Positions 15,436 to 56,319 of a stretch of 64,000 nucleotides of DNA are shown here, in pieces. Under the pieces are notes generated by a model that was not told where the DNA came from, ran no database searches, and worked only from the letters and a program-made list of their open reading frames with translations. Source of the stretch: Phellopilus nigrolimitatus (lineage: Eukaryota > Basidiomycota > Agaricomycetes > Hymenochaetales > Hymenochaetaceae); contig JAJOHG010000027.1 in NCBI GenBank assembly GCA_021029095.1, positions 343,572-407,571 of the forward strand. Direction: 5' to 3'. Position 1 is the first letter of the stretch, and the number at the start of each line of letters is the position of its first letter. Made by a program: the position numbers and the translations under genes.

Positions 15436-18400
15436 ATGGAGGATCTCGAAAAGTTCATTGCCCTTTATCGCGTTGCACTGGATCGGCTTCCTCCTGGACA
15501 CCCTGATCGCCCTCTATGGCTTAACAACCTTGCAGCAACCGTGAGCATCCGGTTTAAACAGACCGGTCGGACGGAGGATCTCGAGGAGTCCATTGCCCTC
15601 TATCGCAATGCGCTGGGGCTGCTTCCCCCTGGACGCCCTGCTTGGTCTATATCGTACAACCTTGCAGCAGCCGTGAGGGCTCGGTTTGAGAAGACAGGTC
15701 GGATAGAAGATCTCGAGGAGTCCATTATCCTCCATCGCGGCGCGCTGAAACTGCATCCTCCTGGACACCCTGATCACTCCTCATCGTTAAACAACCTTGC
15801 CGGAGCCTTGACCATTCGGTTTGAGCATACCGGCCGGATGGAAGATCTCGAGGAATCCATTGCCCTCAGCCGTGACGCGCTGGGACTGCGCCCTCCAAGA
15901 CACCCTGATCACTCCATATCGCTTAACAACCTTGCATCAGCCATGAGCATTCGGTTTGAGCACACCGGTCGGATGGAGGATCTCGAGGAAGCTATTCTCC
16001 TCCATCGCAAAGCGCTGGAACTGTGTCCTCCTGGATTCCCTGATCGCTCCTTATTGTTAAGCAATATCGCAAGCGGCATGAACACTCGGTTTACGCAGAC
16101 CGGTCGGATGGAGGATCTCGAGGAGTCCATTCTCCTTTATCGCAAAGCGCTGAAACACTCTGCTCCTGGATACCCTGGTCGCTCCTTATTGTTAGTCAGC
16201 CTCGCGAGTGCATTGAGCTCTCGGTTTGAACAGACCGGTCGGATGGAGGATCTCGAGGAATCCATTGCCCTCAATCGTGACGCGCTGGGACTGCGTCCTC
16301 CTGGACACCTTGATCGCCCCTCATCATTAACCAACCTCGCAAGTACCGTGAGCACTCGGTTTGCACAGACTGGTCGGATGGAGGATCTCGAGGAGTCCGT
16401 TGCCCTCAACCGCGTTGCATTGGAACTGCGTCCCCCTGGGCACCCTGGTCGCGCCTCATCGTTAAACAACCTCGCATGTGCCGTGAGGACCCGGTTTGAT
16501 CAAACCGGTCGGATGGAGGACCTCGAGGAGTCCATTGCCCTCAATCGTGACGCGCTGAGACTGCGTCCTCCTGGCCACCTTGATCGCCCCGCATCGTTCA
16601 ACAACCTCGCATGTGCCGTGAGGACTCGGTTTGAACAGACCGGTCAGATGGAGGATCTCGAGGAGTCGATTGCCCTCTATCGCAATATGCTGGAACTGCT
16701 TCCCCCTGGGCATCCTGCTTGGTCTATATCGTACAGCAACCTTGCAGCGGATGTATGCACTCGGTTTAGGCAGATCGGTTGGATGGAGGATCTCGAGGAG
16801 TGCATTGCCCTCAACCGCGTTGCTTTGGAACTGCGTCCTGCTGGACACCCTTTCCGCTTCGCATCTCTTAACAATCTTGCCGGTGCCTTGAACACTCGAT
16901 TTGAGCAGACCGGTCGGATGGAAGATCTCGAGGAATCCATTGCCCTCAATCGTGACGCGCTGGGACTGCATCCTCCTGGCCACCTTGATCGCCCCGCATC
17001 GTTCAACAACCTCGCATGTGCCGTGAGGACTCGGTTTGAACAAACTGGTCGGATGGAGGATCTCGAGCAGTCCATTACCTTCCATCGTGACGCACTAGAT
17101 TTGTATCCTTCTGGACACCCTGGTCGCTCCGGATTTTTGAGCAATCTTGCAGGAGCCATGCACACTCATTTTGAGAAGACAGGCCGCAAAGATGATCTTG
17201 AGGAGTCCCTTCGTTTGTATGAAGAAGGCGCTAATCACGTCTTCTCCAATACGCCAACGCGGCTCGGTGTAGCAGTGCGTTGGGCAGCTTTAGCGCGATC
17301 GCAGAGTCATACTTCCACCTTAAGAGCTTACCGACTTGCCCTGTCACTCCTCGAGAGCTCCCTCGTTATCAGTCCCACGGTGCAGTTGCAACATAAGATT
17401 CTTAGCGGTAAAAACGGATGTCCAACACTCGCTTCGGATGCGGCCTCATATGCTATAGAGGTCGGCGAAGTGGCTCAGGCTGTCGAGATGCTCGAGCAAG
17501 GAAGGGCCCTTATCTGGTCGCAGATGCGCGGCCTCAGAACGCCAATTGAACAGCTTAGGGAAGTCAATAAAGGCTTGGCAGACAGGTTCCTAACCACCAG
17601 CCGTGAGCTGGAATCACTTGCCACTTCATCCGAGTCGAAGCCAATTGCTTTGCTCGCACAGGATAGCGCGACAGGTGCATCGCAGAGACTCGTGGACGAA
17701 ATGTATGCTCGAAAGCGGCGTCTCGCGTCCCATTTGGAGGGCATCGTCGCAGAGATTCGCGCGTTGTCAGGCTTTGAAGACTTCCTACGAGCTCGACGAT
17801 TTAGCGTTCTTCAAGAGGCTGCTGTCGAAGGCCCCGTCATCATCATCAGCCACAGCAAATATCGCTCCGATGCTCTTATTGTTCTTCATGATCGCCCGCC
17901 TGTCAGCATCGAGCTGGATACAGACTTCGACTACGACGGCCCCTTGCTTGTGAGAGATCTTAAGTCTGCACTTCAGAAGGTCCAGACGGAGCCGAATGGA
18001 TGTGATGCGGATATCAGAGATGTGCTGGGATCTCTGTGGGACCGGGTGGTTTCCCGGGTGGTCGACAAGCTAGACGAGCTCGGGATTGAGAAACAGACTC
18101 GTATCTGGTGGTGTCCGACATCTTATTTATCTGCTCTACCTTTCCATGCGGCAGGGCCAATTCGTGTTGTGGATGGCATAAGACAGTATCTCTCAGATGA
18201 TTACGTCTCGTCGTACACCCCGACGCTCACAGCCTTGATCAAAGCTCGGGAGTCCAAGCCGGAGATCAGGAGGCACGACATCGGCCGGCCTCAACTGCTC
18301 GTTGTTGCTCTGCCTGATCAAACTATTCCCCTAGTGGAAAAAGAATATCGTGCCATACAGAAGGACAGAGATTTCGTTGAATGTCTTATTCGTGAGCAAG

Positions 18401-18879
18401 CTACCCGCGAGGCAGTTATTGACAATTTCCGCGACCGTCACTGGGTTCATTTTGCCTGCCACGGTCACTTGAATACCGGAGAACCCTTCCTTCATGCGTT
18501 CCAGCTTTACGGCGAAGATCGTCTCACTTTACTCGACATCATTCAATCCAATCTACCGAATGCTGAGTTCGCTTTTTTATCCGCCTGTCACAGTGCGGGA
18601 CAGGTTCTCGACATGGCATTCGGGGAAGTGCTTCATCTCGCTGCAGCCATGCAGTTCTGCGGCTTTCGAAGTGTAATCGGCACGATGTGGGCGATGGCTG
18701 ATGACGATGGGCCTTTCGTCGCCAAGGAATTTTACAGGCGTATGTTTGCGGAGGAGGATTCACCCGAGTTGGGATTCAAGAGGTCTGCGAGGGCTCTTCG
18801 TGAAACGATCCAGCGCTTGCGAAAGAGGAAGGGCATGACGATCGAGAGATGTGTGAATTTTATTCATATCGGAGCATGA
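15436..18879 (+). CDS. TPR-CHAT protein, copy 1 (putative caspase-fold protease)
   Basis: Single exon, 1147 residues. Residues 1-584 are 13 TPR-like units of 45 residues (one of 44). Each opens with M/T/I-EDLEESI, has an ALxLxPPGHP turn and ends NNLAxAVxTRFxxTGR. The units here are the most diverged among the four genes. A capping helix (DDLEESLRLYEEGANHVF) and a helical linker with MLEQGRALIWSQMRGLRTP follow. The CHAT domain (caspase HetF associated with TPRs, clan CD) occupies the last 330 or so residues. The putative catalytic pair is His1009 in HFACHGH and Cys1051 in SACHSAG, followed by the family element FRSVIGTMWAMADDDGPFVA. CHAT proteins are Cys proteases often released by a partner bound to the repeats. 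The ATG is chosen because it aligns with the starts of the other three copies. Confidence 0.88.
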   Translation: MEDLEKFIALYRVALDRLPPGHPDRPLWLNNLAATVSIRFKQTGRTEDLEESIALYRNALGLLPPGRPAWSISYNLAAAVRARFEKTGRIEDLEESIILHRGALKLHPPGHPDHSSSLNNLAGALTIRFEHTGRMEDLEESIALSRDALGLRPPRHPDHSISLNNLASAMSIRFEHTGRMEDLEEAILLHRKALELCPPGFPDRSLLLSNIASGMNTRFTQTGRMEDLEESILLYRKALKHSAPGYPGRSLLLVSLASALSSRFEQTGRMEDLEESIALNRDALGLRPPGHLDRPSSLTNLASTVSTRFAQTGRMEDLEESVALNRVALELRPPGHPGRASSLNNLACAVRTRFDQTGRMEDLEESIALNRDALRLRPPGHLDRPASFNNLACAVRTRFEQTGQMEDLEESIALYRNMLELLPPGHPAWSISYSNLAADVCTRFRQIGWMEDLEECIALNRVALELRPAGHPFRFASLNNLAGALNTRFEQTGRMEDLEESIALNRDALGLHPPGHLDRPASFNNLACAVRTRFEQTGRMEDLEQSITFHRDALDLYPSGHPGRSGFLSNLAGAMHTHFEKTGRKDDLEESLRLYEEGANHVFSNTPTRLGVAVRWAALARSQSHTSTLRAYRLALSLLESSLVISPTVQLQHKILSGKNGCPTLASDAASYAIEVGEVAQAVEMLEQGRALIWSQMRGLRTPIEQLREVNKGLADRFLTTSRELESLATSSESKPIALLAQDSATGASQRLVDEMYARKRRLASHLEGIVAEIRALSGFEDFLRARRFSVLQEAAVEGPVIIISHSKYRSDALIVLHDRPPVSIELDTDFDYDGPLLVRDLKSALQKVQTEPNGCDADIRDVLGSLWDRVVSRVVDKLDELGIEKQTRIWWCPTSYLSALPFHAAGPIRVVDGIRQYLSDDYVSSYTPTLTALIKARESKPEIRRHDIGRPQLLVVALPDQTIPLVEKEYRAIQKDRDFVECLIREQATREAVIDNFRDRHWVHFACHGHLNTGEPFLHAFQLYGEDRLTLLDIIQSNLPNAEFAFLSACHSAGQVLDMAFGEVLHLAAAMQFCGFRSVIGTMWAMADDDGPFVAKEFYRRMFAEEDSPELGFKRSARALRETIQRLRKRKGMTIERCVNFIHIGA

Positions 18880-19277: not shown

Positions 19278-19280
19278 ATA

Positions 19281-19545
19281 CACACGGATGTAGAAAATCG
19301 TGGTGATCGACATTTACTTCCAAATCAGGAAGTAGATTCACATCACCGTGGATAACCGTTGAAACCCTACACATCCTACCTTCAATGCCTGGAACTCGAC
19401 CTGATTCACACAAAAAAGTGTCCCGTTGACAGTATACATTCTTCTCCGGGCTGCCTCAAAGAAAATGTAAGGCAAAACAGGTCTAGGGGTATTTTTCCTT
19501 TTTTGGATGTCCATGTCGATCACCACGACTTTCTACATCCGTGTG
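19281..19545 (+). mobile_element. 265-bp MITE, left copy of the inverted pair
   Basis: Begins CACACGGATGTAGAAAATCG and ends with the inverted form (CGACTTTCTACATCCGTGTG), with TA on both sides (19279-19280 and 19546-19547). TA flanks and inverted ends suggest a Tc1/mariner-type non-autonomous element. No transposase frame is present. Confidence 0.7.
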
Positions 19546-19547
19546 TA

Positions 19548-19812
19548 CACACGGATGTAGAAAGTCGTGGTGATCGACATGGACATCCAAAAAAGGAAAA
19601 ATACCCCTAGACCTGTTTTGCCTTACATTTTCTTTGAGGCAGCCCGGAGAAGAATGTATACTGTCAACGGGACACTTTTTTGTGTGAATCAGGTCGAGTT
19701 CCAGGCATTGAAGGTAGGATGTGTAGGGTTTCAACGGTTATCCACGGTGATGTGAATCTACTTCCTGATTTGGAAGTAAATGTCGATCACCACGATTTTC
19801 TACATCCGTGTG
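19548..19812 (-). mobile_element. 265-bp MITE, right copy of the inverted pair
   Basis: Exact reverse complement of the left copy, with which it shares the central TA. The outer TA is at 19813-19814. A related but diverged element lies at 27599-27866. Confidence 0.7.
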
Positions 19813-22054: not shown

Positions 22055-25000
22055 ATGGAATTTCTCGGGCAGCTCATTGCCCATTGTCGTGATGTGCTAA
22101 TTCGTTGTCTGCGCGGATTCCTATATCGTCTCGCACCTCCGGGTGCCATTGCAGCGGCTTTGTTCACTCGGTTTGAGCAAACCGGTCGTATGGATGATCT
22201 CCAGGTGTCTATTTCACTCTTCCGTGACGCACTAGAAATCCATTCTCCTGGACATCCCGATCACTCCTCATCAATGAACAATCTTGCAGTAGCCGTGAGC
22301 ACTCGGTTTGAGCAAACCGGTCGGATGGAGGATCTCGAGGAGGCCATTGTCCTCCATCGCGACGCACTAGAACTGCATCCTCCTGGACACACTCTTCGCT
22401 CCGGATCTCTTAACAACCTCGCGAATGCCGTGCAGACTCGCTTCAAGCATACCGGTCGGATGGAGGATCTCGAGGAGGCCATTGTCCTCCATCGCGACGC
22501 ACTAGAACTGCATCGTCCTGGACACACTCATCGCTCCTCATCGCTAAATAATCTTGCAGTAGCTGTGCGAACTCGCTTCGAGCAGACCGGTCGGATGGAG
22601 GATCTCGAGGAAGCCATTGTCCTCCATCGCGACGCACTAGAACTGCATCCTCCTGGACACCCACGTCGCTCCACATCGTTCAACAACCTCGCGAATGCCG
22701 TGCAGACTCGCTTCGAGCGGACCGGTCGGATGGAGGATCTCGAGGAGGCCATTGTCCTCCATCGCGACGCACTAGAACTGCGTCCTCCTGGACACACTCT
22801 TCGCTCCTCATCGTTCAACAACCTCGCGAATGCCGTGCAGACTCGCTTCGAGCGGACCGGTCGGATGGAGGATCTCGAGGAAGCCATTGTCCTCCATCGC
22901 GACGCGCTAGAACTGCATCCTCCTGGACACACTGATCGCTCCTCATCGTTTAACAACCTCGCGAATGCCGTGCAGACTCGCTTCGAGCGGACCGGTCGGA
23001 TGGAGGATCTCGAGGAGGCCATTGTCCTCCATCGCGACGCGCTAGAACTGCGTCCTCCTGGACACCCTGATCGCTCCTCATCGTTCAACAACCTCGCGAA
23101 TGCCGTGCAGACTCGCTTCGAGCGGACCGGTCGGATGGAGGATCTCGAGGAGGCCATTGTCCTCCATCGCGACGCGCTAGAACTGCGTCCTCCTGGACAC
23201 ACTCTTCGCTCCTCATCGTTCAACAACCTCGCGAATGCCGTGCAGACTCGCTTCAAGCATACCGGTCGGATGGAGGATCTCGAGGAAGCCATTGTCCTCC
23301 ATCGCGACGCGCTAGAACTGCGTCCTCCTGGACACACTCTTCGCTCCTCATCGTTCAACAACCTCGCGAATGCCGTGCAGACTCGCTTCGAGCGGACCGG
23401 TCGGATGGAGGATCTCGAGGAAGCCATTGTCCTCCATCGCGACGCGCTAGAACTGCATCCTCCTGGACACACTGATCGCTCCTCATCGTTTAACAACCTC
23501 GCGAATGCCGTGCAGACTCGCTTCGAGCGGACCGGTCGGATGGAGGATCTCGAGGAGGCCATTGTCCTCCATCGCGACGCGCTAGAACTGCATCCTCCTG
23601 GACATTCTCATCGCTCCGCATCGATTAACAATCTCGCGAATGCCGTGCAGACTCGCTTCAAGCAGACCAGTCGGATGGAGGATCTCGAGGAGGCCATTGT
23701 CCTCCATCGCGACGCGCTAGAACTTCGTCCTCCTGGACATCCTGATCGCTCCTCGTCGCTAAACAATCTTGCAGGAGCCGTGCGAACTCGCTTCAAGCAT
23801 ACCGGTCGGATGGAGGATCTCGAGGAGTCGCTCCGTATTTATGAAGAAGGTGCTGAACATGTCTTCTCCAATACGCTAACGCGGCTCGAAGTAGCAGTGC
23901 GATGGGCAGTTTTAGCACGATCACAGCGTCATGTTCCCACCCTAAAAGCTTACCGTGTCGCTCTGTCACTCCTCGAGAAATTCCTCGTCATTACTCCCAC
24001 CGTGCAGATGCAGCATAAGATTCTTCTTGGTAAAAACGGATATCCAACTCTCGCTTCGGATGCGGCCTCATATGCTATAGAGATCGGTGAAGTGGCCCAG
24101 GCTGTCGAGATGCTCGAGCAAGGCAGGGCCCTTATCTGGTCTCAGTTACGCGGTTTCAGAACGCCAATTGAACAGCTTAGGGAAGTCAATAAAGGCTTGG
24201 CAGACAAGTTTTTAACTACCAGCCGTGAACTGGAATCGCTTGCCACTTCATCCGAGTCGAAGCCAACTACTTTGGACGCACGGCATAGCGCGACAGGTGC
24301 ATCGCAGAAACTCGTGGACGAAATGTATGCTCGAAAGCGGCGTCTTGCATCGCAATTGGAGGACATCATCACAGAGATTCGCGCGACGTCAGGATTTGAA
24401 GACTTCCTACGAGCTCGACGATTTAGCGTTCTTCGAGAGGCTGCTGTCGAGGGCCCCGTCATCATCGTCAGCCACAGCGAATATCGTTCCGATGCTCTTA
24501 TTATTCTTCATGATCGCCCGCCTGTCAGCATCGAACTGGATACAGACTTCGACCACGACGGCCCCTCGCTTGTGGTAGAGCTCAAGACTGCACTCCAAAA
24601 GGCTCAGACGGAGCCGAAAGCATGTGATGCGGGTATTGAAGGTGTGCTGGAATCCCTGTGGAACCGGGTGGTTTCCCGGGTGGTCGACAAGCTGGACGTG
24701 CTCGGGATTAAGAAACAGACTCGTATCTGGTGGTGTCCGACATCTTATCTATCTGCTCTACCTTTCCATGCGGCAGGGCCAATTCCCGTTGTGGATCGCA
24801 GAAGAAAGTATCTTTTAGACGATTACATTTCGTCGTACACCCCGACACTTACAGCCTTGATCAATGCTCGGTCCGAGCCTGAGATCAGAAGACACGAAAT
24901 TAAACGACCGCAACTCCTCGTTGTTGCTCTGCCTGATGAAACTATCCCCAAAGTAGAAAAAGAATATCGTGCCATACAGGAAAGCAGAGATTTTGTCAAA

Positions 25001-25498
25001 TGTCTCGTTCGTGAGCGAGCTACTCGCAAGGCAGTTTTCGACAAATTTCGTGACCATGACTGGGTACATTTTGCCTGCCATGGTCATTTAAATCGCGAAG
25101 AACCCTTCAAACACGCGTTCCAGCTTTACGGCGAAGACCGTCTCACTTTGCTCGACATCATTCAATCCAATCTACCGAATGCTGAACTCGCATTTTTATC
25201 TGCTTGTCACAGTGCGGGACAGGTTATTGACGGGGCGTTCGGGGAAGTGCTTCATCTCGCTGCAGCTATGCAGTTCTCTGGCTTTCGAAGTGTAATCGGT
25301 ACGATGTGGGCGATGGCTGACGACGATGGGCCTTTCGTCGCCAAGGAATTCTACAAGCGTATGTTTGCGGAGGAGGATTCACCTGAGTTGGGATTCAAGC
25401 GGTCTGCGAGGGCTCTTCGTGAAACGGTCCAGTGCTTGCGAAAGAGGCGGGGTATGACGGTCGAGAGATGGGTCAATCTGATTCACATTGGAGCATGA
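22055..25498 (+). CDS. TPR-CHAT protein, copy 2 (putative caspase-fold protease)
   Basis: Single exon, 1147 residues. A degenerate first unit (MEFLGQLIAHCRDVLIRC) is followed by twelve 45-residue units, most of them nearly identical (MEDLEEAIVLHRDALEL at the head, NNLANAVQTRF near the end), to residue 585. The MLEQGRALIWSQ linker and the CHAT domain follow, with His1009 (HFACHGH) and Cys1051 (SACHSAG) both present. Differences between units concentrate at the ELH/R position, the GHTL/TD/PD/PR turn and the RFE/K-R/H/Q position. The repeat tract is very uniform at DNA level, including a 280-bp exact repeat 540 bp apart. It sits in block A, with copy 3 as its block-B counterpart. Role as for copy 1; the ligand is unknown. 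Confidence 0.9.
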   Translation: MEFLGQLIAHCRDVLIRCLRGFLYRLAPPGAIAAALFTRFEQTGRMDDLQVSISLFRDALEIHSPGHPDHSSSMNNLAVAVSTRFEQTGRMEDLEEAIVLHRDALELHPPGHTLRSGSLNNLANAVQTRFKHTGRMEDLEEAIVLHRDALELHRPGHTHRSSSLNNLAVAVRTRFEQTGRMEDLEEAIVLHRDALELHPPGHPRRSTSFNNLANAVQTRFERTGRMEDLEEAIVLHRDALELRPPGHTLRSSSFNNLANAVQTRFERTGRMEDLEEAIVLHRDALELHPPGHTDRSSSFNNLANAVQTRFERTGRMEDLEEAIVLHRDALELRPPGHPDRSSSFNNLANAVQTRFERTGRMEDLEEAIVLHRDALELRPPGHTLRSSSFNNLANAVQTRFKHTGRMEDLEEAIVLHRDALELRPPGHTLRSSSFNNLANAVQTRFERTGRMEDLEEAIVLHRDALELHPPGHTDRSSSFNNLANAVQTRFERTGRMEDLEEAIVLHRDALELHPPGHSHRSASINNLANAVQTRFKQTSRMEDLEEAIVLHRDALELRPPGHPDRSSSLNNLAGAVRTRFKHTGRMEDLEESLRIYEEGAEHVFSNTLTRLEVAVRWAVLARSQRHVPTLKAYRVALSLLEKFLVITPTVQMQHKILLGKNGYPTLASDAASYAIEIGEVAQAVEMLEQGRALIWSQLRGFRTPIEQLREVNKGLADKFLTTSRELESLATSSESKPTTLDARHSATGASQKLVDEMYARKRRLASQLEDIITEIRATSGFEDFLRARRFSVLREAAVEGPVIIVSHSEYRSDALIILHDRPPVSIELDTDFDHDGPSLVVELKTALQKAQTEPKACDAGIEGVLESLWNRVVSRVVDKLDVLGIKKQTRIWWCPTSYLSALPFHAAGPIPVVDRRRKYLLDDYISSYTPTLTALINARSEPEIRRHEIKRPQLLVVALPDETIPKVEKEYRAIQESRDFVKCLVRERATRKAVFDKFRDHDWVHFACHGHLNREEPFKHAFQLYGEDRLTLLDIIQSNLPNAELAFLSACHSAGQVIDGAFGEVLHLAAAMQFSGFRSVIGTMWAMADDDGPFVAKEFYKRMFAEEDSPELGFKRSARALRETVQCLRKRRGMTVERWVNLIHIGA
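22325..23809 (+). repeat. 135-bp coding tandem repeat array of copy 2
   Basis: Eleven consecutive 135-bp units. Bases 22772-23051 and 23312-23591 look identical, an offset of exactly four units, as expected from unequal crossing-over or slippage within the gene. Confidence 0.85.
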
Positions 25499-27596: not shown

Positions 27597-27598
27597 TA

Positions 27599-37640: not shown

Positions 37641-37915
37641 CCTGATCACCTGATCACGAAGAGCTCGTGCATGGCAGAGGCTCTCTACTAGAGTCTCTAC
37701 TCCTGCGAAGGGGTTATATCGTATGAGAATAATGGTGTGGAACTACAGTATTCAAATATATTCTACTCTGCTTTCCCTTTTTTTACTTACCAGAGGACCC
37801 CCCTCCTGCTGAATCGTTTCTCGAAGCTAGGCTACTGTAAATTTCAAACCCGGACGCGGGGCGGCTACTCAATCGGTAGCCAGTACCAACGGCCGTCGGT
37901 CGATTGTACCATAAA

Positions 37916-37947
37916 CCACCACCACGACCACCACGACCACCACGACC
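37916..37947. repeat. (CCACGA)n short tandem repeat
   Basis: Counterpart of 20262-20286 with more units. Confidence 0.7.
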
Positions 37948-38089
37948 GCGTTATGTCTAAAATCATGTCCGGAAAATTTGACGATGTGCTCGGTATCGGA
38001 ATTGTCGAACAGACGAGTACTAGCGGCGAGGTGAATGTTATAGGCGTTCCGCACAATCAGCGCATCCAGTAGCACTCAGCTATCCTGCA

Positions 38090-39704
38090 CGGCGAGATGG
38101 CGACGCTCAAACAGACGGACATGTTGAAGGCGAATGTGTCTCAAAACCCCACGATCGTAAGCATAAAGTACTTTTATTACGACGGCGCGCGTTGACGAGC
38201 CTTTCATACTCGTATACACTATTCAGGCGAGACAATGACAACCTCTATCCCATGTTTCTAACTCTTCTTCAACCCTTGTGACTTCTGCGCTGGAGCCAAT
38301 TCTCGTCAAATTTCTTCCGCACGCTCAAGCTCAATAACGCATCAAGACGCGTGTCCGCAAGTATCGCGAGCATTGGGATACGCTCGTTTAACAGCGCTTA
38401 GACGCGGGACCCATCCGACCATCATCAAGCCCATATACCTCGCCGGCCTTCCTTGCTATAAAAATGGGCTCCCTTGCTTCCTTACAACATCGCGGGTCTT
38501 CGTCTGCGAGAACATCGATTTCCTAAGTGCGTTGAGTTCACAGGATGTCGAGATCATCGTTATCGATGATCAGGAGTGAAGTTCATTAGTGAGCATTGAA
38601 AGCAAGTCATCTCTAATTTTGTTGTTTGAGTTCGATACGATGATTCCGGTTACTTTAGAAAGGGGTAGAATGAAGATACCGGTGAGCCGTAAAAGGTTGA
38701 GATGCACATACAGCATGGATCGATACACGGACTGCATTGCACGAAGAAGCGTACGGCTTCTATGAGATGTGATACTCCAGAGTCTCGAATGGCCATATCA
38801 AATACACCGCGCCTCCGGCAAACACAACAAGGATGCGTCCTTGGTGAGGCGGTGAGTTCTTGTTCTTTTTCCTCGTGATGATTTCGTGATGGCACCAGTC
38901 GTAGTCCTAAGGACATTAACTATCGGCGGTGTAAGACAGTTTGAACCATTCTCAAGGCCTTTGATTTGTAAACGTCGCCGAATGACTACTAATCTTGTTT
39001 CTTTATTTGCCAGGCGTTGCCCATCGGGGAGGGCGGCAGAGGAAACGACGAAGGCACGACGGGCATGGGCAGATGACACAAATAAAGCCAGGTACGTGAT
39101 TGTTTACACCATGCTATCCACCTTCGCAATAAAGGCTGAGGACAGTAAAGTCTCGTTGTTTGATATATGGACATGTATCTGGGTTTTAGATTTCGGCAAC
39201 ATTCGGCCGCTTGCTTCTCGAATGGTTCGAAGTTTGCGGAAGCTGAAGTCAACACGCTATAAATCCGGGGACACCATGGGAGTGTTGCTTTCACGCTCAC
39301 GCTCGACCCTTTCCTCCTGTCGATGTCAAGCGGTCTCCGCCAGACGGGGACTGTCCATAAAAACAAGATAGGAAAGTTCAACATCCAGAAGGTGAGCGAT
39401 ATCTGGGATCGTCGAGAGTACCACTGAACTGCGCTGAACACCTCCTCTGATGCTCATAGCCTACAGACACACTTGCAGCCTCGCGTAACATTTTACTTGA
39501 GACTATCATAGCAAAACAGACAGAGGTAGGATCTGCCTTAACCGACAATGGATTGCTCTAATCCTTCTTGTGATATGCTGTACAGAGCGCGCAAATTTTC
39601 AGTATAAGCAACTATATCCTTCATACTCGGCGTAAGTATATCTTCAGCACATAGAAAATCATGATCAATCAAAGTTCATGTTCATCCTCAAGTAATCCGC
39701 ACAG
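38090..39704 (+). repeat. Upstream module of TPR-CHAT copy 3
   Basis: Homologue of the modules before the other CHAT genes. Traces: THPTIIKPIYLAGLPCYKNG near 38420 and VEIIVIDDQE near 38555. The intron donor GTAAGTATAT is kept at 39632, but about 23 bp including the usual CCTCGCAG acceptor and the first exon bases are deleted. The nearest AGs are at 39691-39692 and in CACAG immediately before the ATG. Confidence 0.6.
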
Positions 39705-42700
39705 ATGGAAAATCTCGAGCAGCTCATTGCCCGTGGTTGGGATGTGCTAAATCGTTGTCTACGTGTATTCCTATGTCGTCTCGCACCTCCTAATACCTTT
39801 GCGGCGGCTGCGGCATCTCTTAACAGTTATGCAGCGGCTGTGTTTACTCTGTTTCAGCAGACCGTCCGTATCGATAATCTCAAGCAGTCCATTTCACTCT
39901 TTCACGACGCACAGATGGAAAAGTGCTTGCAGTTCGTTGCCCGCAATTGGGGTGAGCTAAGTCCTCGTCAGCATGGATTCCTTTATCGTCTCGCACCTTC
40001 GGAATTCCTTGCAGCGATTGCGTTCACTCGATTTGAGCAGAGCAGTCGGATGGAGGATCTCGAGGAGGCCATTGTCCTCCATCGTGACGCGCTAGAACTG
40101 CATCCTCCTGGACACACTGATCGCTCCTCATCGTTCAACAACCTCGCAAATGCCGTGCTGACTCGCTTCGAGCAGACCGGTCGGATGGAGGATCTCGAGG
40201 AGTCCATTTCCCTCCATCGCGATGCGCTGGAACTGCGTCCTCCTGGAAACACTGATCGCTCCTCATCGCTAAATAATCTTGCAGTAGGTGTGCAGACCCG
40301 GTTTGAGCAAACCGGTCGGATGGAGGATCTCGAGGAGGCCATTGTCCTCCATCGCGACGCGCTAGAACTGCGTCCTCCTGGACACACTCTTCGCTCCGGA
40401 TCTCTTAACAACCTCGCGGGTGCCGTGCGGACTCGCTTCGAGCAAACCGGCCGGATGGAGGATCTCGAGGAGGCCATTGTCCTCCATCGCGACGCGCTAG
40501 AACTGCGTCCTCCTGGACACCCTGACCGTTCCATGTCACTTAACAACTTCGCAAATGCCGTGCAGACCCGGTTCGAGCAAACCGGTCGGATGGAGGATCT
40601 CGAGGAGTCCATTTCCCTCCATCGCGATGCGCTGGAACTGCGTCCTCCTGGAAACACTGATCGCTCCTCATCGCTAAATAATCTTGCAGTAGGTGTGCAG
40701 ACCCGGTTTGAGCAAACCGGTCGGATGGAGGATCTCGAGGAGGCCATTGTCCTCCATCGCGACGCACTAGAACTGCGTCCTCCTGGACACCCGGATCGCT
40801 CCTCATCGCTAAATAATCTTGCAATAGCTGTGCGAACTCGGTTTGAGAAAAGCGGTCGGATGGAGGATCTCGAGGAGGCCATTGTCCTCCATCGCGACGC
40901 ACTAGAACTGCGTCCTCCTGGACACCCGGATCGCTCCTCATCGCTAAATAATCTTGCAGTAGCTGTGCGAACTCGGTTTGAGAAAAGCAGTCGAGTGGAG
41001 GATCTCGAGGAGGCCATTGTCCTCCATCGCGACGCACTAGAACTGCGTCCTCCTGGACACCCTGATCGCTCCTCATCGCTAAATAATCTTGCAATAGCCG
41101 TGCAAACTCGGTTTGAGGAAAGCGGTCGGGTGGAGGATCTCGAGGAGTCTCTCCGTTATCGTGAAGAAGGCGCTGATCATGTCTTCTCCAATACGTTAAC
41201 GCGGCTCTTAATAGCAGTGCAATGGGCAGCTTTAGCACGATCACAGCGTCATGCTTCCACCTTGAAAGCTTACCGTCTTGCTCTGTCACTCCTCGAAAGC
41301 TCGCTCGTTATAAGTCCCACCGTGCAGATGCAGCACAAGATTCTTAGCGGTAAAAACGGTTATCCAACTCTTGCTTCGGATGCGGCTTCATATGCTATAG
41401 AGAACGGTGAGGTGGCTCAAGCTGTCGAGATGCTCGAGCAAGGCAGGGCCCTTATTTGGTCGCAGTTACGTGGCCTTAGGACACCAATGGATCGACTTGC
41501 AGAAGTCAACGAAGGCTTGGCAGTCAGGTTCCTAACCACCAGCCGTGAGCTGGAATCACTTGCCACTTCATCCGAGTCGAAGCCATTTGCTTTGCTCGCA
41601 CAGGATAGCACGACAGGTGCATCGCAGAAACTCGTGGACGAAATGTATGCTCGAAAGCGGCGTCTTGCATCGCAATTGGAGGACATCGTCACAGAGATTC
41701 GCGCGACGTCAGGATTTGAAGACTTCCTACGAGCTCGACGATTTAGCGTTCTTCAAGAGGCTGCTGTCGAGGGCCCCGTCATCATCATCAGCGACAGCAA
41801 ACATCGTTCCGATGTTCTCATTGTTCTTAATGATCGCCCGCCTGTCAGCATCGAACTGGATTCAAATTTCTCCCTCGATTCCATTGACCTCTTTGGAGAT
41901 CTTAAGCTCGCACTTCAGAAGGTTCAGACGGAGCCGAATGTATGTGATGCGGGTATCAGAGATGTCTTGGAATCCCTGTGGAATCGGGTGGTTTCCCGGG
42001 TGGTCGAGAAGCTGGACGAACTCGGGATTGAGAAACAGACTCGTATCTGGTGGTGTCCGACATCTTATTTATCTGCTCTACCTTTTCACGCGGCAGGGCC
42101 AATTCGTGTTGTGGATGGCATAAGACAGTATGTCTCAGATGATTACGTCTCGTCGTACACCCCAACGCTCACAGCCTTGGTCAATGCTCGAGAGTCCAAG
42201 CCTGAGATCAGGAGGCACGACAATGAACGACCACGGCTCCTCGTTGTTGCTTTGTCTGATAAAAGTCTTCCTTCAGTCGAAGAAGAGTATCGTGCCATAC
42301 AGGAAAACAGAGATTTTGTCAGATGTCTCGTTGGTGAGCAAGCTACTCGCGAAGCGGTTATCGACAAATTTCGTGATCATGACTGGGTACATTTTGCTTG
42401 CCACGGCCATTTGAATCACGAACAACCCTTCCTCCATGCGTTCCAGCTTTTCGGCGAAGATCGTCTCACTTTGCTCGACATCATTCAATCCAATCTACCG
42501 AATGCTGAATTCGCATTTCTATCCGCCTGTCACAGTGCGGGACAGGGTCTTGACGGGGCATTCGGGGAAGTGCTTCATCTTTCTGCAGCCATGCAGTTCT
42601 CCGGCTTTCGAAGTGTAATCGGTACAATGTGGGCGATGGCTGATATTGATGGGCCTTTCGTCACCAAGAGATTTTACAGACATATGTTTGCGAAGGAGGA

Positions 42701-42821
42701 TTCACCCGAGCTGGGATACAAGAGGTCTGCGAGGGCTCTTCGTGAAACGATCCAGCGCTTGCGAAAGAGGCAGGGCATTACGGTCGAGAGATGGGTCAAT
42801 TTGATTCACATTGGAGCATGA
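39705..42821 (+). CDS. TPR-CHAT protein, copy 3 (putative caspase-fold protease, short repeat tract)
   Basis: Single exon, 1038 residues, the shortest of the four. Residues 1-115 are a duplicated, degenerate cap (MENLEQLIARGWDVLNRC and again MEKCLQFVARNWGELSP) resembling the single cap of copy 2. Eight canonical 45-residue units follow (40050-41129), two of which (units 4 and 7 overall) are identical in sequence. The late units carry TRFEKSGR/TRFEKSSR/TRFEESGR ends not seen elsewhere. The CHAT domain is intact with His900 (HFACHGH) and Cys942 (SACHSAG). A local difference is MADIDGPFVTKRFYRHMF in place of MADDDGPFVAKEFYKRMF. Its leader lost the usual splice acceptor, so its expression may differ from the others. 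Confidence 0.88.
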   Translation: MENLEQLIARGWDVLNRCLRVFLCRLAPPNTFAAAAASLNSYAAAVFTLFQQTVRIDNLKQSISLFHDAQMEKCLQFVARNWGELSPRQHGFLYRLAPSEFLAAIAFTRFEQSSRMEDLEEAIVLHRDALELHPPGHTDRSSSFNNLANAVLTRFEQTGRMEDLEESISLHRDALELRPPGNTDRSSSLNNLAVGVQTRFEQTGRMEDLEEAIVLHRDALELRPPGHTLRSGSLNNLAGAVRTRFEQTGRMEDLEEAIVLHRDALELRPPGHPDRSMSLNNFANAVQTRFEQTGRMEDLEESISLHRDALELRPPGNTDRSSSLNNLAVGVQTRFEQTGRMEDLEEAIVLHRDALELRPPGHPDRSSSLNNLAIAVRTRFEKSGRMEDLEEAIVLHRDALELRPPGHPDRSSSLNNLAVAVRTRFEKSSRVEDLEEAIVLHRDALELRPPGHPDRSSSLNNLAIAVQTRFEESGRVEDLEESLRYREEGADHVFSNTLTRLLIAVQWAALARSQRHASTLKAYRLALSLLESSLVISPTVQMQHKILSGKNGYPTLASDAASYAIENGEVAQAVEMLEQGRALIWSQLRGLRTPMDRLAEVNEGLAVRFLTTSRELESLATSSESKPFALLAQDSTTGASQKLVDEMYARKRRLASQLEDIVTEIRATSGFEDFLRARRFSVLQEAAVEGPVIIISDSKHRSDVLIVLNDRPPVSIELDSNFSLDSIDLFGDLKLALQKVQTEPNVCDAGIRDVLESLWNRVVSRVVEKLDELGIEKQTRIWWCPTSYLSALPFHAAGPIRVVDGIRQYVSDDYVSSYTPTLTALVNARESKPEIRRHDNERPRLLVVALSDKSLPSVEEEYRAIQENRDFVRCLVGEQATREAVIDKFRDHDWVHFACHGHLNHEQPFLHAFQLFGEDRLTLLDIIQSNLPNAEFAFLSACHSAGQGLDGAFGEVLHLSAAMQFSGFRSVIGTMWAMADIDGPFVTKRFYRHMFAKEDSPELGYKRSARALRETIQRLRKRQGITVERWVNLIHIGA

Positions 42822-51099: not shown

Positions 51100-52467
51100 T
51101 AAGTGTTGGCGGTCTTAATTGAGAGCTGCTTTCTAAAATCGAACTCACTTTCAGCCCCTGCCATGTGTACGCTGGTGCCAACTCCCGACAAATGTTTTTT
51201 TACAAGCTCAGGGACGCAAATAAATCTATTCGTGTCCGCGCAAGTACCGCAAACATTGGGAGACGCTCGTAAATCAGCATCTTGACTCGGGACGCGTCCG
51301 ACCTTCATCGAGCCCACATATCTCGCCGGCCTTCCAAGTTACGAAGGCGGATTCCCTCGCTCACCTACACCTTCAAAATTGCGGATAAACCTCTGAGCTC
51401 ACGGGGTGTCAAGGTCATCGCTATCGATGATTTGGACTGCAAAGACTTGGTGTCGAAGTTCATTAAAGAGCACGCAAGGTAACCTATTTTCTTCGTTTGT
51501 TATTCGAGTTTCATACGATGATTCAGGTTATCTTTAAAAAGAGTGGAAAAAATATATTGGCGAACCGTAAATGGTCAAAACGTATATGCAGACTGCAGTG
51601 CATGAAGAAGCATATGGCTTCTAACAGGTGGTTTACACCTGCAAGTCTTGAATGGACATATCAATTACTTATAGCACTGCGCCCCCGATAATACCACAAG
51701 GACACGTTTTTGGTGATGAAGTGAGTATTTTAAGAAAAGCATAATTACTTGCACCTCTGATACTTTCAATGCTTTTCTTCAATTCTTTTCGAGGCGAAAG
51801 ACGTTGCGCGCAGCGGTAAGGGCGGCAGAGCTGACAACGAACGCGCGACGAGTATGAGCGCCGGGGAACAATCGGGATGCTACACGGAAAGCCAGGTGCG
51901 TGTTTGTTTACACTGTGCTACCTGCCTTCGTTTTAGCTTTCGGCATCATCCAGCTTCTTGCCTTTCGAACAGTCCGTAGTTTTCCGGAATCAAAGTCAAC
52001 ACCATATAGATACGAATACCATGGGAGTGCTGCTTTCACGCTTTTGACCCTTTCCCTCCTCTCGTGTTAAGTGGTCTTTGCTGCCCGAGAACTATCTCAA
52101 ACTCGATATAAGAACAACTTAGGAAAGTATAAGATCCGGAGGTGAGCGATATCTGGAATCGCCGAGAGCACCATCGAACTGGGCAATGACCACTTTTCTG
52201 ACGCTCATAGCCCAGGGATACACTTGCAGCCTTGCGTAACTTTTTACCTGAGACTATCGTAGCGAACTAGACAGAGGTAGGATCTACCTTGACCGACAAC
52301 GGACTACACTGATTCTTCATGTGACTTGCCGTACAGAGCGCACAAATTCTCAGTATAGGCAACTATATCCTTCAAACCCGGCGTGAGTATATTTCTAGGA
52401 TACTATATACCATATTCGTGTTCATCCTCGCAGTTGCCGTGTAAGGGTTCTCAAGTAACTTGTACGG
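51100..52467 (+). repeat. Upstream module of TPR-CHAT copy 4
   Basis: Homologue of the three other modules. Traces: TRPTFIEPTYLAGLPSYEG near 51300 and VKVIAIDDLDCKDLVSKFIK near 51410, the longest intact version of that block. It ends with the conserved leader intron (52383-52433). The stretch before it (50560-51100) holds no supported gene. Confidence 0.6.
52383..52433 (+). other. 5'-UTR intron of TPR-CHAT copy 4
   Basis: Donor GTGAGTATAT and acceptor CATCCTCGCAG, 51 nt long (62 in copies 1 and 2), 34 bp before the ATG. Confidence 0.65.
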
Positions 52468-55400
52468 ATGGATGATGTCGAGGATTCGATTGCCAACTTG
52501 CGTGACGCACTGGACCTGTGTCCTCCTGGGCATCCCGAACGCTCCGCATCTCTGAGTGATCTTGCAAATGCCGTGTTCACTCGATTTGAGCAAAGCGGTC
52601 GGATGGGTGATCTCGAGGAGTCTATTGTTCTCAATCGCGTCGCGCTGGAACTACGTCCTCCTGGAAACCCTGATCGCTCCTCATCGTTTAACAACCTCGC
52701 CATTGCCGTGCAGACTCGGTTCAAGCAAACCGGTCGGATGGAGGATCTCGAGGAGTCCATTGCCCTCAATCGCGACGCGCTAGAACTGTATCCTCCTGGA
52801 CACCCTCATCGCTCCATGTCATTTAACAACCTCGCCATTGCCGTGCAGACTCGGTTCGAGCAAACCGGTCGGATGGAGGATCTCGAGGAGTCCATTGCCC
52901 TCAATCGCGACGCGCTAGAACTGTATCCTCCTGGACACCCTCATCGCTCCATGTCATTTAACAACCTCGCCATTGCCGTGCAGACTCGGTTCGAGCAAAC
53001 CGGTCGGATGGAGGATCTCGAGGAGTCCATTGCCCTCAATCGCGACGCGCTAGAACTGTATCCTCCTGGACACCCTCATCGCTCCATGTCATTTAACAAC
53101 CTCGCGGGTGCCGTGCAGACTCGCTTCGAGCAAACCGGTCGGATGGAGGATCTCGAGGAGTCCATTGCCCTCAATCGCGACGCGCTAGAACTGTATCCTC
53201 CTGGACACCCTCATCGCTCCATGTCATTTAACAACCTCGCGGGTGCCGTGCAGACTCGCTTCGAGCAAACCGGTCGGATGGAGGATCTCGAGGAGGCCAT
53301 TGTCCTCCATCGCGACGCTCTAGAGCTGCGTCCTCCTGGACACCCTCGTCGCTCCTCATCGTTTAACAACCTCGCGGCTGCCGTGGGGACTCGCTTCGAA
53401 CAGACCGGTCGGATTGAGGATCTCGAGAAGGCCATTGTCCTCCATCGCGACGCGCTAGAACTGCATCCTCCTGGACACCCGGATCGCTCCTTATCGCTAA
53501 ATAATCTTGCTGTAGGTGTGCGAACTCGGTTTGAGCAAACCAGTCGGATGGGGGATCTCGAGGAGGCCATTGTCCTCCATCGCGACGCTCTAGAACTGCG
53601 TCCTCCTGGTCACCCTCTTCGCTCCACGTCATTTGGCAACCTCGCAAATGCCGTTTCGACTCGGTTCGGGCAAACAGGTCGGATGGAGGATCTGGAGGAG
53701 GCCATTGTCCTCCATCGCGACGCTCTAGAACTGCGTCCTCCTGGTCACCCTCTTCGCTCCATGTCATTTGGCAACCTCGCAAATGCCGTTTCGACTCGCT
53801 TCGAGCAAACCGGTCGGACGGAGGATCTGGAGGAGTCCATTGTCCTCCATCGCGACGCGCTGGAACTGCGTCCTCCTGGACACCCTCTTCGCTCCTCATC
53901 GTTAAACAACCTCGCGAATGCCGTGCAGACTCGGTTCGAGCAAACCGGTCGGATGGAGGATCTGGAGGAGGCCATTGTCCTCCATCGCGACGCTCTAGAA
54001 CTGCGTCCTCCTGGTCACCCTAATCGCTCCATGTCATTTGGCAACCTCGCAAGTGCCATTTCGACTCGGTTCGAGCAAACCGGTCGGATGGAGGATCTCG
54101 AGGAGTCCATTGCCCTCAATCGCGACGCGCTAGAACTGTATCCTCCTGGACACCCTCATCGCTCCATGTCATTTAACAACCTCGCGGGTGCCGTGCAGAC
54201 TCGCTTCGAGCAAACCGGTCGGATGGAGGATCTGGAGGAGGCCATTGCCCTTAATCGCGACGCGCTGAAACTACATCCTCCTGGTCACCCTCTTCGCTCC
54301 ATGTCATTTGGCAACCTCGCGAATGCCGTGCAGACTCGGTTCGAGCAAACCGGTCGGACGGAGGATCTGGAGGAGGCCATTGCCCTTAATCGCGACGCGC
54401 TGAAACTTCATCCTCCTGGACACCCTGGTCGTTCTATGTCATTTGGCAACCTCGCGAGTGCCGTGCGGACTCGGTTCGAGCAAACCGGTCGGATGGAGGA
54501 TCTCGAGGAGTCTATTGTTCTCAATCGCGACGCTCTGAAACTTCATCCTCCTGGACATCCTGACCGCTCCGGATCTTTGAGCAATCTAGCAGAAGACATG
54601 CACACTCATTTTGAGCAGACAGGTCGGATAGATGATCTTGAGGAGTCCCTTCGTTTGTATGAAGAAGGCGCTGATCATGTCTTTTCCAACACGCTAACAC
54701 GGCTCAGGGTAGCAGTGTTGTGGGCAAGTGTAGCGCGATTGCAGCGTCATGCTTCCACCTTAAAAGCTTACCGTCTTGCTCTGTCACTCCTCGAGAGCTC
54801 CCTCGTTATAAGTCCCACGGTGCAGATGCAACATAAGATTCTTAGCGGTAGAAATGGCTATCCAACGCTCGCTTCGGATGCGGCCTCATATGCACTAGAG
54901 GTCGGTGATCTGGCTCAGGCTGTCGAGATGCTCGAGCAAGGAAGGGCTCTTATCTGGTCGCAGATGCGCGGCCTCAGAACACCAATGGATCGTCTTGCAG
55001 GAGTCGATGAGGATTTAGCGGACAGATTCTTGAAGATCAGCCGTGAACTGGAATCACTTGCCACTTCGTCCGAGTCGAAGCCGCTTACTTTGGACACAGA
55101 GAATAGCGTTACAGGTGCATCGCAGAAACTCGTGGACGAAATGTATGTTCGAAAGCGGCGTCTCGCGTCCGAATTGGAGGTCATCGTCGCAGAGATTCGC
55201 GCGACATCAGGATTTGAAGACTTTCTACGACCGCGACGATTTAGCGTTCTTCAAAAGGCTGCTGTTGAGGGCCCCGTCATTATCATTAGCCATAGCAAAT
55301 ATCGTTCCGACGCTCTTACTGTTGTTCATGATCGTCCGCCTGTCAACATCGAACTGGATTCTGACTTCGACGACCACGGCCCGTCGCTTGTGGGAGATCT

Positions 55401-56319
55401 TAAGACTGCACTCCAAAAGGCTGAGACAGAGCCGGAAGCATGTGATGCTGGTATTGAAGATGTGCTGGATTCCCTGTGGAACCGGGTGGTTTCCCGCGTG
55501 GTCGAGAAACTGGACGAGCTCGGGGTTGAGAAACATACTCGTATCTGGTGGTGTCCGACATCTACCTTATCTGCTCTACCTTTTCATGCTGCAGGGCCAA
55601 TTCGCATTGTGGATCGCAAAAGAAAGTATCTTTTAGACGATTACATTTCGTCGTACACCCCGACACTTACAGCCTTGATCAATGCTCGGCAGTCTAACAC
55701 TGAGATCACGAGACATAACACTAGGCGACCACGGCTCCTCGTTGTTGCTCTGGCTGATGAAAGTCTCCCCAAAGTAGAAAAAGAGTATCGTGCAATACAG
55801 GAAGGCAGAGATTTCGTCAAAGGGCTCGTTCGTGAGCAAGCTACTCGCGAGGCGGTTATCGACGATCTCCGTAACCACGACTGGGTTCATTTTGCTTGCC
55901 ACGGTCAGTTAGATCGCGAGGAACCCTTCCTCCACGCGTTCCAACTTTTCGACGAAGACCGTCTCACCTTGCTCAAAATCATGCAATCCAATCTACCGAA
56001 TGCAGAATTCGCTTTCTTATCTGCCTGTGACAGTGTGGGACAGACTGTTGGCAGTGCACGCGGAGAAGTGCTTCATCTCGCTGCAGCCATACAGTTCTGC
56101 GGCTTTCGAAGTGTAATCGGTACGATGTGGGCGATGGCTGATGACGATGGGCCTTTCGTCGCCAAGGAATTCTACAAGCGTATGTTTGCGGAGGAGGATT
56201 TACCGGAGGTGGGGTTCAAGAGGTCTGCGAGAGCTCTTCGTGAGATGATCCAACTCTTGCGGAGGAGGAGGGGTATGACGGTCGAGAGATGGATCAATTT
56301 TATTCATATCGGAGCATGA
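52468..56319 (+). CDS. TPR-CHAT protein, copy 4 (putative caspase-fold protease, long repeat tract)
   Basis: Single exon, 1283 residues, the longest of the four. Sixteen 45-residue units cover residues 1-720. Unit 1 (MDDVEDSIANLRDALDLC) is canonical here, unlike the degenerate caps of copies 2 and 3. Units 3-6 are nearly identical at DNA level. Two unit flavours alternate in blocks: EESIALNRDALELYPPGHPH and EEAIVLHRDALELRPPGHP. The CHAT domain keeps His1145 (HFACHGQ) and Cys1187, but the Cys motif reads SACDSVG instead of SACHSAG and the next segment (TVGSARGEV) is diverged. It lies outside blocks A and B and has the most different protease domain, so it may be the oldest or functionally shifted member. 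Confidence 0.88.
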   Translation: MDDVEDSIANLRDALDLCPPGHPERSASLSDLANAVFTRFEQSGRMGDLEESIVLNRVALELRPPGNPDRSSSFNNLAIAVQTRFKQTGRMEDLEESIALNRDALELYPPGHPHRSMSFNNLAIAVQTRFEQTGRMEDLEESIALNRDALELYPPGHPHRSMSFNNLAIAVQTRFEQTGRMEDLEESIALNRDALELYPPGHPHRSMSFNNLAGAVQTRFEQTGRMEDLEESIALNRDALELYPPGHPHRSMSFNNLAGAVQTRFEQTGRMEDLEEAIVLHRDALELRPPGHPRRSSSFNNLAAAVGTRFEQTGRIEDLEKAIVLHRDALELHPPGHPDRSLSLNNLAVGVRTRFEQTSRMGDLEEAIVLHRDALELRPPGHPLRSTSFGNLANAVSTRFGQTGRMEDLEEAIVLHRDALELRPPGHPLRSMSFGNLANAVSTRFEQTGRTEDLEESIVLHRDALELRPPGHPLRSSSLNNLANAVQTRFEQTGRMEDLEEAIVLHRDALELRPPGHPNRSMSFGNLASAISTRFEQTGRMEDLEESIALNRDALELYPPGHPHRSMSFNNLAGAVQTRFEQTGRMEDLEEAIALNRDALKLHPPGHPLRSMSFGNLANAVQTRFEQTGRTEDLEEAIALNRDALKLHPPGHPGRSMSFGNLASAVRTRFEQTGRMEDLEESIVLNRDALKLHPPGHPDRSGSLSNLAEDMHTHFEQTGRIDDLEESLRLYEEGADHVFSNTLTRLRVAVLWASVARLQRHASTLKAYRLALSLLESSLVISPTVQMQHKILSGRNGYPTLASDAASYALEVGDLAQAVEMLEQGRALIWSQMRGLRTPMDRLAGVDEDLADRFLKISRELESLATSSESKPLTLDTENSVTGASQKLVDEMYVRKRRLASELEVIVAEIRATSGFEDFLRPRRFSVLQKAAVEGPVIIISHSKYRSDALTVVHDRPPVNIELDSDFDDHGPSLVGDLKTALQKAETEPEACDAGIEDVLDSLWNRVVSRVVEKLDELGVEKHTRIWWCPTSTLSALPFHAAGPIRIVDRKRKYLLDDYISSYTPTLTALINARQSNTEITRHNTRRPRLLVVALADESLPKVEKEYRAIQEGRDFVKGLVREQATREAVIDDLRNHDWVHFACHGQLDREEPFLHAFQLFDEDRLTLLKIMQSNLPNAEFAFLSACDSVGQTVGSARGEVLHLAAAIQFCGFRSVIGTMWAMADDDGPFVAKEFYKRMFAEEDLPEVGFKRSARALREMIQLLRRRRGMTVERWINFIHIGA
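52738..53277 (+). repeat. Homogenised 135-bp unit block in copy 4
   Basis: Four successive units are near-identical. The first two steps (units 3, 4 and 5) show no difference over at least a full unit, apart from the NNLAIAV/NNLAGAV switch in unit 5. Very recent expansion or gene conversion. Confidence 0.8.

What the first reader, a model, noticed from the sequence alone, without database searches (positions are those of the whole stretch)
15436..56319. Array of four TPR-CHAT proteins with intact catalytic pairs and expanding repeat tracts
Four full-length paralogues (1147, 1147, 1038 and 1283 residues) in one orientation within 41 kb. All keep the CHAT His (HFACHG) and Cys (SAC). TPR-CHAT proteins are known as repeat-gated caspase-like proteases, for example Csx29 of the bacterial Craspase complex and the TPR-CHAT proteases paired with bacterial gasdermins. 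A local fungal expansion with intact proteases and diversifying sensors suggests a recognition or regulated-death system not described in this setting. The role is inference.
Basis: partly seen in the sequence, partly recalled or inferred. Interest (0 to 1): 0.9.

Follow-up and report, generated by a model that had tools for sequence, protein, structure and literature searches.

The report
Fungal TPR-CHAT proteases with hypervariable sensors
A wood-decay fungus carries four neighbouring genes that each join a caspase-like protease domain to an array of repeats whose fastest-changing positions mostly match those where such repeats usually grip their targets, so they are likely immune-type sensors in which a bound foreign or altered molecule would switch on the protease.

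Summary
In detail: four long open frames on one strand carry 45-residue TPR arrays (12, 12, 8 and 15 units) and a C-terminal CHAT domain whose His and Cys align with H585/C627 of the Craspase TPR-CHAT protease. The organism is the basidiomycete Phellopilus nigrolimitatus; these are 4 of at least 28 CHAT copies in its genome. 25 of 28 keep the dyad; three related copies lack the Cys. CHAT is under purifying selection (median dN/dS 0.27). In the repeats, four unit positions (32, 35, 42, 45), also the most variable in other fungi, show dN/dS near 2 against 0.28 elsewhere (1.4 when scaled to their own dS). Three of them equal TPR positions 2, 9 and 12 on the concave ligand face. Copies with near-identical protease ends differ in repeat number (13/16, 8/13, 14/2) or carry different arrays; gene 1 does not show this. 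I read them as hypervariable intracellular receptors fused to a protease, working like fungal NLRs without a NOD domain. Ligand, substrate and executioner are unknown. The novelty claim is only partly right: TPR-bearing CHAT proteases acting on gasdermins are known in ascomycetes, and TPR-CHAT expansions in corals.

The parts
15436..18879 (+). TPR-CHAT gene 1 (1147 aa from first Met); older, diverged array of 12 scored units
22055..25498 (+). TPR-CHAT gene 2 (1147 aa); 12 units, mean 88.3% identical DNA
39705..42821 (+). TPR-CHAT gene 3 (1038 aa); 8 units
52468..56319 (+). TPR-CHAT gene 4 (1283 aa); 15 units
15433..17208 (+). 135-bp (45 aa) TPR array of gene 1
22166..23827 (+). 135-bp TPR array of gene 2
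40026..41147 (+). 135-bp TPR array of gene 3
52579..54648 (+). 135-bp TPR array of gene 4
18019..18876 (+). CHAT domain of gene 1
   Evidence: residues 913-1183 of P0001; drawn to the stop
24644..25495 (+). CHAT domain of gene 2
   Evidence: residues 867-1149 of P0002; drawn to the stop
41961..42818 (+). CHAT domain of gene 3
   Evidence: residues 756-1040 of P0003; drawn to the stop
55462..56316 (+). CHAT domain of gene 4
   Evidence: residues 1002-1285 of P0004; drawn to the stop
42402..42404 (+). predicted catalytic His of gene 3 (ACHG; H900 from the Met)
42528..42530 (+). predicted catalytic Cys of gene 3 (SAC; C942 from the Met)
37642..39500 (.). upstream element of gene 3, repeated before genes 1, 2 and 4 (13897-15276, 20512-21823, 51135-52225) and before 21 of the 26 CHAT copies then at hand, these four included; little coding signal by a weak test, possibly a shared 5' region

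Best explanation
The four genes encode TPR-CHAT proteins: a hypervariable N-terminal TPR array that likely binds varied non-self or altered molecules, joined to a C-terminal caspase-like CHAT domain whose intact His/Cys pair is predicted to be switched on by that binding and to cut a still unknown substrate, probably to start regulated cell death or a defence response. Shown by sequence: the architecture, the dyad, purifying selection on CHAT, excess amino-acid change at a few repeat positions that mostly match the TPR ligand face, and turnover of arrays between copies with near-identical protease ends. Inferred: ligand binding, allosteric activation (as in Craspase), proteolysis, and the biological role. 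Diversity would arise by unequal exchange of 135-bp units within and between genes, plus selection on single codons. Three copies without the catalytic Cys keep open frames and conserved CHAT domains, so they are probably decoys or regulators rather than dead genes.
For: CHAT over cut-off in all four; Csx29 model matched at E 1e-10 to 5.5e-13 over the protease part; dyad aligned to H585/C627; dyad kept in 104 of 104 listed homologues not named Phellopilus. CHAT dN/dS median 0.27 over 323 of the 325 pairs of 26 copies, none above 1. Positions 42, 45, 35, 32 are the most variable within arrays elsewhere (545 units found in 104 proteins; ranking from 1482 unit pairs in the 52 proteins with four or more units). 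In Phellopilus the same four have dN/dS 1.96 (gene bootstrap 1.56-2.30; 305 close unit pairs, 21 genes) against 0.28 (0.23-0.37) for the rest, and 1.38 (1.04-2.02) when scaled to their own dS. Alignment to a consensus TPR puts units 35, 42, 45 at TPR positions 2, 9, 12 (consensus numbering recalled), in the set that PMC1261162 gives as concave face (passages). Array turnover: 13 vs 16 units with CHAT 99.8% identical; 8 vs 13 with CHAT 99.6%; 14 vs 2 with CHAT 98.9%; a different array with CHAT 98.1% and linker 99.5%. Fungal NLR TPRs show the same regime (PMC4986451, one section).
Against: No ligand, substrate or executioner identified. The gasdermin model PF04598 finds nothing in the genome, though that model may miss fungal gasdermins. 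No conserved partner gene was recognised beside the CHAT genes: the recurring neighbour ORF has relatives only in Phellopilus (6 proteins). Gene 1 and its counterpart on C631 have 12 units each and no change at the four positions (25 changes elsewhere); C604/C625 differ by 3 replacements, none there. dS is raised at the four codons (0.253 against 0.178), which shrinks the ratio to 1.38, or 1.20 (1.04-1.38) with the widest cut-off. Positions 26 (1.68) and 37 (1.08) also exceed 1 and are outside the canonical ligand set; TPR position 5 (unit 38) does not exceed 1 (0.81). The fold was not modelled. No strain comparison; pairs of contigs are taken as haplotypes by inference.
Confidence: 0.6

Rival explanations
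1. The arrays turn over neutrally: tandem repeats expand and homogenise by unequal crossing-over, the CHAT proteins are ordinary scaffolds or separase-like regulators (human TTC28 is a putative TPR-CHAT homologue named in PMC12314368), and no recognition takes place.
For: 135-bp repeats with few differences between nearest units are expected to misalign. Gene 1 and C604/C625 show no change at the four positions between copies. Only 5 of 27 arrays reach 85% internal identity over three or more units. Scaled to their own dS the four positions exceed 1 only narrowly (lower bound 1.04).
Against: Excess amino-acid change is confined to a few positions while positions 39-41 stay at 0-0.06; the same four positions lead in other species; the ratio stays above 1 with local dS at cut-offs 12, 20 and 30.
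Confidence: 0.2
2. They are the somatic-incompatibility (allorecognition) genes of this basidiomycete, each haplotype encoding a different recognition specificity.
For: Contig pairs that look like two haplotypes carry different numbers of genes (C212 5, C617 10) and different arrays; a CHAT gene is an incompatibility gene in A. fumigatus; the mechanism is unknown in basidiomycetes (PMC8229728, passages).
Against: PMC8229728 argues that direct allelic interaction is not compatible with the heterokaryotic life cycle, in which both haplotypes share a cell; no segregation or fusion data.
Confidence: 0.15
3. Gene debris carried along by segmental duplication, without function.
For: CHAT genes are duplicated in blocks with a G-alpha gene, a GNAT fragment and an orphan ORF; one copy is split between frames (C190:162584-164552), another has part of its repeats in a separate frame upstream (C617:20706-21206), and C170 has an array without CHAT.
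Against: 27 of 28 copies have repeat units and CHAT in one open frame and CHAT dN/dS is 0.11-0.52 between copies.
Confidence: 0.05

Closest known systems
Fungal gasdermin-activating CHAT/S8 proteases (Q2L, Podospora and others)
   Same: Superstructure-forming repeats such as TPR joined to a protease domain, CHAT in a part of them; presumed sensor and executor in one chain (PMC12881547, passages; PMC10197012, one section and passages)
   Different: No gasdermin found by PF04598 or among neighbours; basidiomycete; tandem clusters with homogenised 45-residue repeats
Csx29 / Craspase TPR-CHAT
   Same: CHAT homologue with aligned dyad; TPR next to CHAT; allosteric gating is the model borrowed here
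   Different: 41-49 bits against a model cut-off of 300; its RNA-guided partner Cas7-11 is prokaryotic
Fungal NLRs with highly conserved ANK/TPR/WD repeats (nwd family and others)
   Same: Homogenised repeats, repeat-number polymorphism, positive selection on the concave TPR face (PMC4986451)
   Different: No NACHT or NB-ARC domain; protease joined directly to the repeats
Coral TPR-CHAT expansions
   Same: Same domain order; up to hundreds of copies; copy-number variation; variable TPR length (PMC12314368, passages)
   Different: Animal; the passages seen report no codon-level selection on ligand positions
Aspergillus fumigatus hetB
   Same: CHAT-domain protein in non-self recognition (PMC11138114, passages)
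   Different: One idiomorphic locus; no TPR repeats named in the text searched

Membership tests
CHAT family (PF12770) | Profile score over the curated cut-off | tested here: met
   112-119 bits against 24 in four of four
CHAT family (PF12770) | Catalytic His and Cys at the caspase/separase positions | tested here: met
   four of four in the window; 25 of 28 in the genome; aligned to H585/C627
CHAT family (PF12770) | Caspase-like fold | not tested
CHAT family (PF12770) | Protease activity | not testable with these tools
   needs biochemistry
Csx29 (NF041237) | Model cut-off of 300 bits | tested here: not met
   41-49 bits
Fungal NLR (STAND) | Central NACHT or NB-ARC domain | tested here: not met
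   no such domain listed for the four proteins at E <= 0.01; the genome has 24 NACHT matches, none on the contigs of the CHAT clusters
Fungal NLR (STAND) | Highly conserved repeats, as in PMC4986451 (85% over 100 aa or more); not required of every NLR | tested here: met
   my version (three or more consecutive units at 85% or more): three of four window genes, 5 of 27 arrays in the genome
Gasdermin-protease two-gene cluster | Gasdermin gene within about 10 kb | tested here: inconclusive
   PF04598 finds none in the genome; the model may not detect fungal gasdermins; the neighbour ORFs tested with Pfam match other families or none
TPR-CHAT as in corals | N-terminal TPR tract and one C-terminal CHAT | tested here: met

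The most novel reading that the evidence does not exclude
Agaricomycetes run a large intracellular immune-receptor repertoire without NLR switches: clustered TPR-CHAT genes in which hypervariable, exchangeable TPR arrays act as the recognition face of a directly gated caspase-like protease, with whole arrays swapped between haplotypes and a side branch of protease-dead copies acting as decoys. These loci would be strong candidates for the long-sought non-self recognition genes of mushrooms.
Probability: 0.3. Interest if true: 0.9.

Novelty: new variant of a known kind. Interest (0 to 1): 0.62.

Why it matters
The mechanism of somatic non-self recognition in basidiomycetes is called completely unknown in PMC8229728 (passage). 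A family that joins a selected, fast-exchanging repeat face to a caspase-like protease, in clusters that differ between what look like two haplotypes of one genome, gives named loci and named residues to test. It also suggests that hypervariable repeat sensors are not tied to NLR switches in fungi, and it parallels the TPR-CHAT expansion of corals.

Tried and rejected
Structure prediction against Csx29 could not be run; I used alignments to solved chains instead. A partner gene was sought among neighbours: recurring ORF families, codon-position signal in shared flanks (none in two elements, one window in the upstream element, three in the orphan ORF; weak, as the G-alpha control gave one window only), Pfam and homologues of the commonest neighbour ORF (Phellopilus only). 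None looks like an executioner. Gasdermin model PF04598: no hit, not decisive. PADLOC gave one match, to the repeats of gene 4. Pfam hits such as Retrotrans_gag, T4_RIIA1 and DUF1677 fall on the TPR repeats and are taken as repeat-driven. Whether paired contigs are haplotypes: RPB2-type genes occur at three loci only, as in a haploid set, yet C190/C631 are 95% identical and colinear over 19 kb and C617/C212 94% beside the last CHAT gene; a third copy (C355) of the window's left end, 96-98% identical, does not fit a simple two-haplotype assembly. The right flank is also present at 100% on C96 and, in part, on C35, so the assembly is partly redundant.

The four test positions follow the ranking in other species, but I had already seen the Phellopilus profile; the choice is independent by rule, not blind. 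Two of 325 CHAT pairs were left out by the filter on synonymous change.
Full report
What is there. Four open frames on the + strand at 15283-18879, 22046-25498, 39696-42821 and 52459-56319 give 1147, 1147, 1038 and 1283 residues from the first Met. Each carries TPR_10 repeats and one CHAT domain. The repeats are 135 bp, 45 residues: 13.2, 12.3, 8.3 and 15.3 copies by Tandem Repeats Finder; 12, 12, 8 and 15 units by my profile.

Where it is. The closest named database proteins are from Phellopilus nigrolimitatus, a basidiomycete of the Hymenochaetales. The window is the end of contig C190 of a 56.4-Mb assembly, close to the 56.7 Mb listed for this species in a table of PMC10410303, which calls it saprophytic (passage). 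The genome has 28 CHAT matches on eight contigs, a lower bound; 23 of them lie in clusters on C190, C631, C212 and C617. I obtained all 28 (window). The homologue search scored 7993 candidates, 3141 with E <= 0.001; organisms named among the 120 listed include Fomitiporia, Sanghuangporus, Coniferiporia, Heterobasidion, Russula, Lactarius and Lactifluus.

The protease. phmmer aligns the His (ACHG) and Cys (SAC) of gene 4 to H585 and C627 of the Craspase TPR-CHAT chain 7x8a_D (weak by itself, E 0.017; I counted along the printed alignment), the dyad reported in PMC9729208 (passages). The Csx29 model matches the protease part at E 1e-10 to 5.5e-13 but far under its cut-off. The dyad is present in 25 of 28 Phellopilus copies and in 104 of 104 listed homologues not named Phellopilus. 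The three copies without the Cys (C334, C45, C617:76773; the first and the last also without the His) group together on the tree (support 0.92) and have median CHAT dN/dS of 0.26-0.33 against the others. Over 323 of 325 pairs of 26 copies, CHAT dN/dS has a median of 0.27 and a maximum of 0.52; the linker has a median of 0.35 and a maximum of 0.84.

The sensor. In 231 units from the 26 copies then at hand, variability is highest at unit positions 42, 45, 35 and 32. In 104 proteins listed from elsewhere I found 545 units; in the 52 proteins with four or more units (1482 unit pairs) the same four positions lead. Within Phellopilus arrays, using unit pairs 1-20 nt apart (305 pairs, 21 genes; all 28 copies scanned), dN/dS at these four is 1.96 (gene bootstrap 1.56-2.30) relative to the dS of the whole unit, 1.38 (1.04-2.02) relative to their own dS, and 0.28 (0.23-0.37) for the other 41 positions; none of 20000 random four-position sets reached the value. 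Cut-offs 12 and 30 give 2.08 and 1.69 (2.39 and 1.20 with own dS) against 0.27 and 0.34. The alignment to the solved consensus TPR 8bu0 puts unit positions 35, 38, 42 and 45 at TPR positions 2, 5, 9 and 12 (numbering of the consensus recalled); position 32 lies in a four-residue loop insert just before, near TPR 33-34. PMC1261162 (passages) gives 2, 5, 9, 12, 13, 33 and 34 as the most variable TPR positions, all on the concave face. Positions 26 (1.68) and 37 (1.08) also exceed 1 and are not explained by this set; position 38 is variable but not above 1 (0.81). Fungal NLRs show positive selection on the concave TPR face (PMC4986451, one section read).

Array turnover. C604 and C625: CHAT 99.8% and linker 99.9% identical, 13 against 16 units; the 13 matched units differ by 3 nt and the rest is one three-unit insertion. 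C190:383267 (gene 3) and C631:71994: CHAT 99.6%, upstream flank 91.3%, downstream 97.8%, but 8 against 13 units, the matched ones 7-23 nt apart. C212:2986 and C617:54554: CHAT 98.9%, 14 against 2 units. C212:39227 and C617:9887: CHAT 98.1%, linker 99.5%, yet all but the last two of 12 matched units differ at 33-50 of 135 nt. C45 and C334: flanks 92-94% identical, units 81% (226 differences in 1215 nt), with 1.51 at the four positions. At the place best supported as allelic by its flank, C212:64985 and C617:85832, CHAT is 90.5% identical and units number 9 against 3. Identical units are shared between genes in 26 unit pairs over six gene pairs, some on different clusters, which suggests exchange between genes. 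Against this, gene 1 and C631:80402 have 12 units each and no change at the four positions, and only 5 of 27 arrays are highly homogenised.

Haplotypes. C190 and C631 are colinear at 95% for 19 kb, and C617 and C212 match at 94% beside the last CHAT gene. I take these as the two nuclei of the mycelium, in part retained by the assembler; then the C212/C617 cluster has 5 against 10 CHAT genes. A single set of RPB2-type genes, a third copy C355 and redundant ends mean this is inference.

Neighbours. Blocks duplicated with the CHAT genes contain a G-alpha gene, a GNAT fragment and an orphan basic ORF. A Clp-like ATPase gene with ankyrin repeats lies between genes 2 and 3. None is a known executioner. 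An upstream element precedes 21 of the 26 CHAT copies then at hand and shows little coding signal by a weak test.

How it likely works. By analogy with Craspase, where target binding moves the TPR part of Csx29 and realigns the dyad (PMC10028731, passages), ligand binding in the concave groove would switch on the protease; the substrate would be a death effector or regulator. This is inference. The evolutionary regime of the sensor is that of fungal NLRs, but the NOD switch is absent, so these proteins would work like NLRs without being NLRs.

What is new. In the searches (open-licence PubMed Central only; listings, with passages or sections of the papers named here) I saw no report of selection on TPR ligand positions in CHAT proteins, or of CHAT clusters in mushrooms. 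Known already: fungal CHAT proteases and gasdermins, A. fumigatus hetB, coral TPR-CHAT expansion. Hence a new variant of a known kind.

Noticed in passing
window 19278-19815: A perfect 269-nt palindrome without spacer between genes 1 and 2; may be an assembly artefact or a young hairpin element.
   Followed up: partly
window 19991-31402 and 37642-48518: An 11-kb block duplicated in the window at about 83-84% identity, carrying a CHAT gene and its neighbours.
   Followed up: partly
C334:31713, C45:14490, C617:76773: A clade of CHAT copies without the catalytic Cys, with open frames and conserved CHAT domains; possible decoys or regulators.
   Followed up: partly
L034 (C170:8845-10947): A 701-residue open frame made of 45-residue repeats, with no CHAT match in the 4.5 kb fetched; detached sensor or debris.
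   Followed up: partly
window 48990-50080 and three places on C617: A G-alpha gene or fragment is repeated beside CHAT genes.
   Followed up: no
window 45281-46814 (-): Orphan basic, low-complexity ORF co-duplicated with CHAT genes; relatives only in Phellopilus (6 proteins).
   Followed up: partly
window 32863-35497 (-): Clp-like AAA ATPase exons with ankyrin repeats.
   Followed up: no
window 62872-63392: 105-bp tandem repeat, 4.9 copies, 96% matches.
   Followed up: no
window 57200-62300: Identical at 100% to C96:24692-29792 and partly to C35, so contig ends overlap in the assembly.
   Followed up: partly
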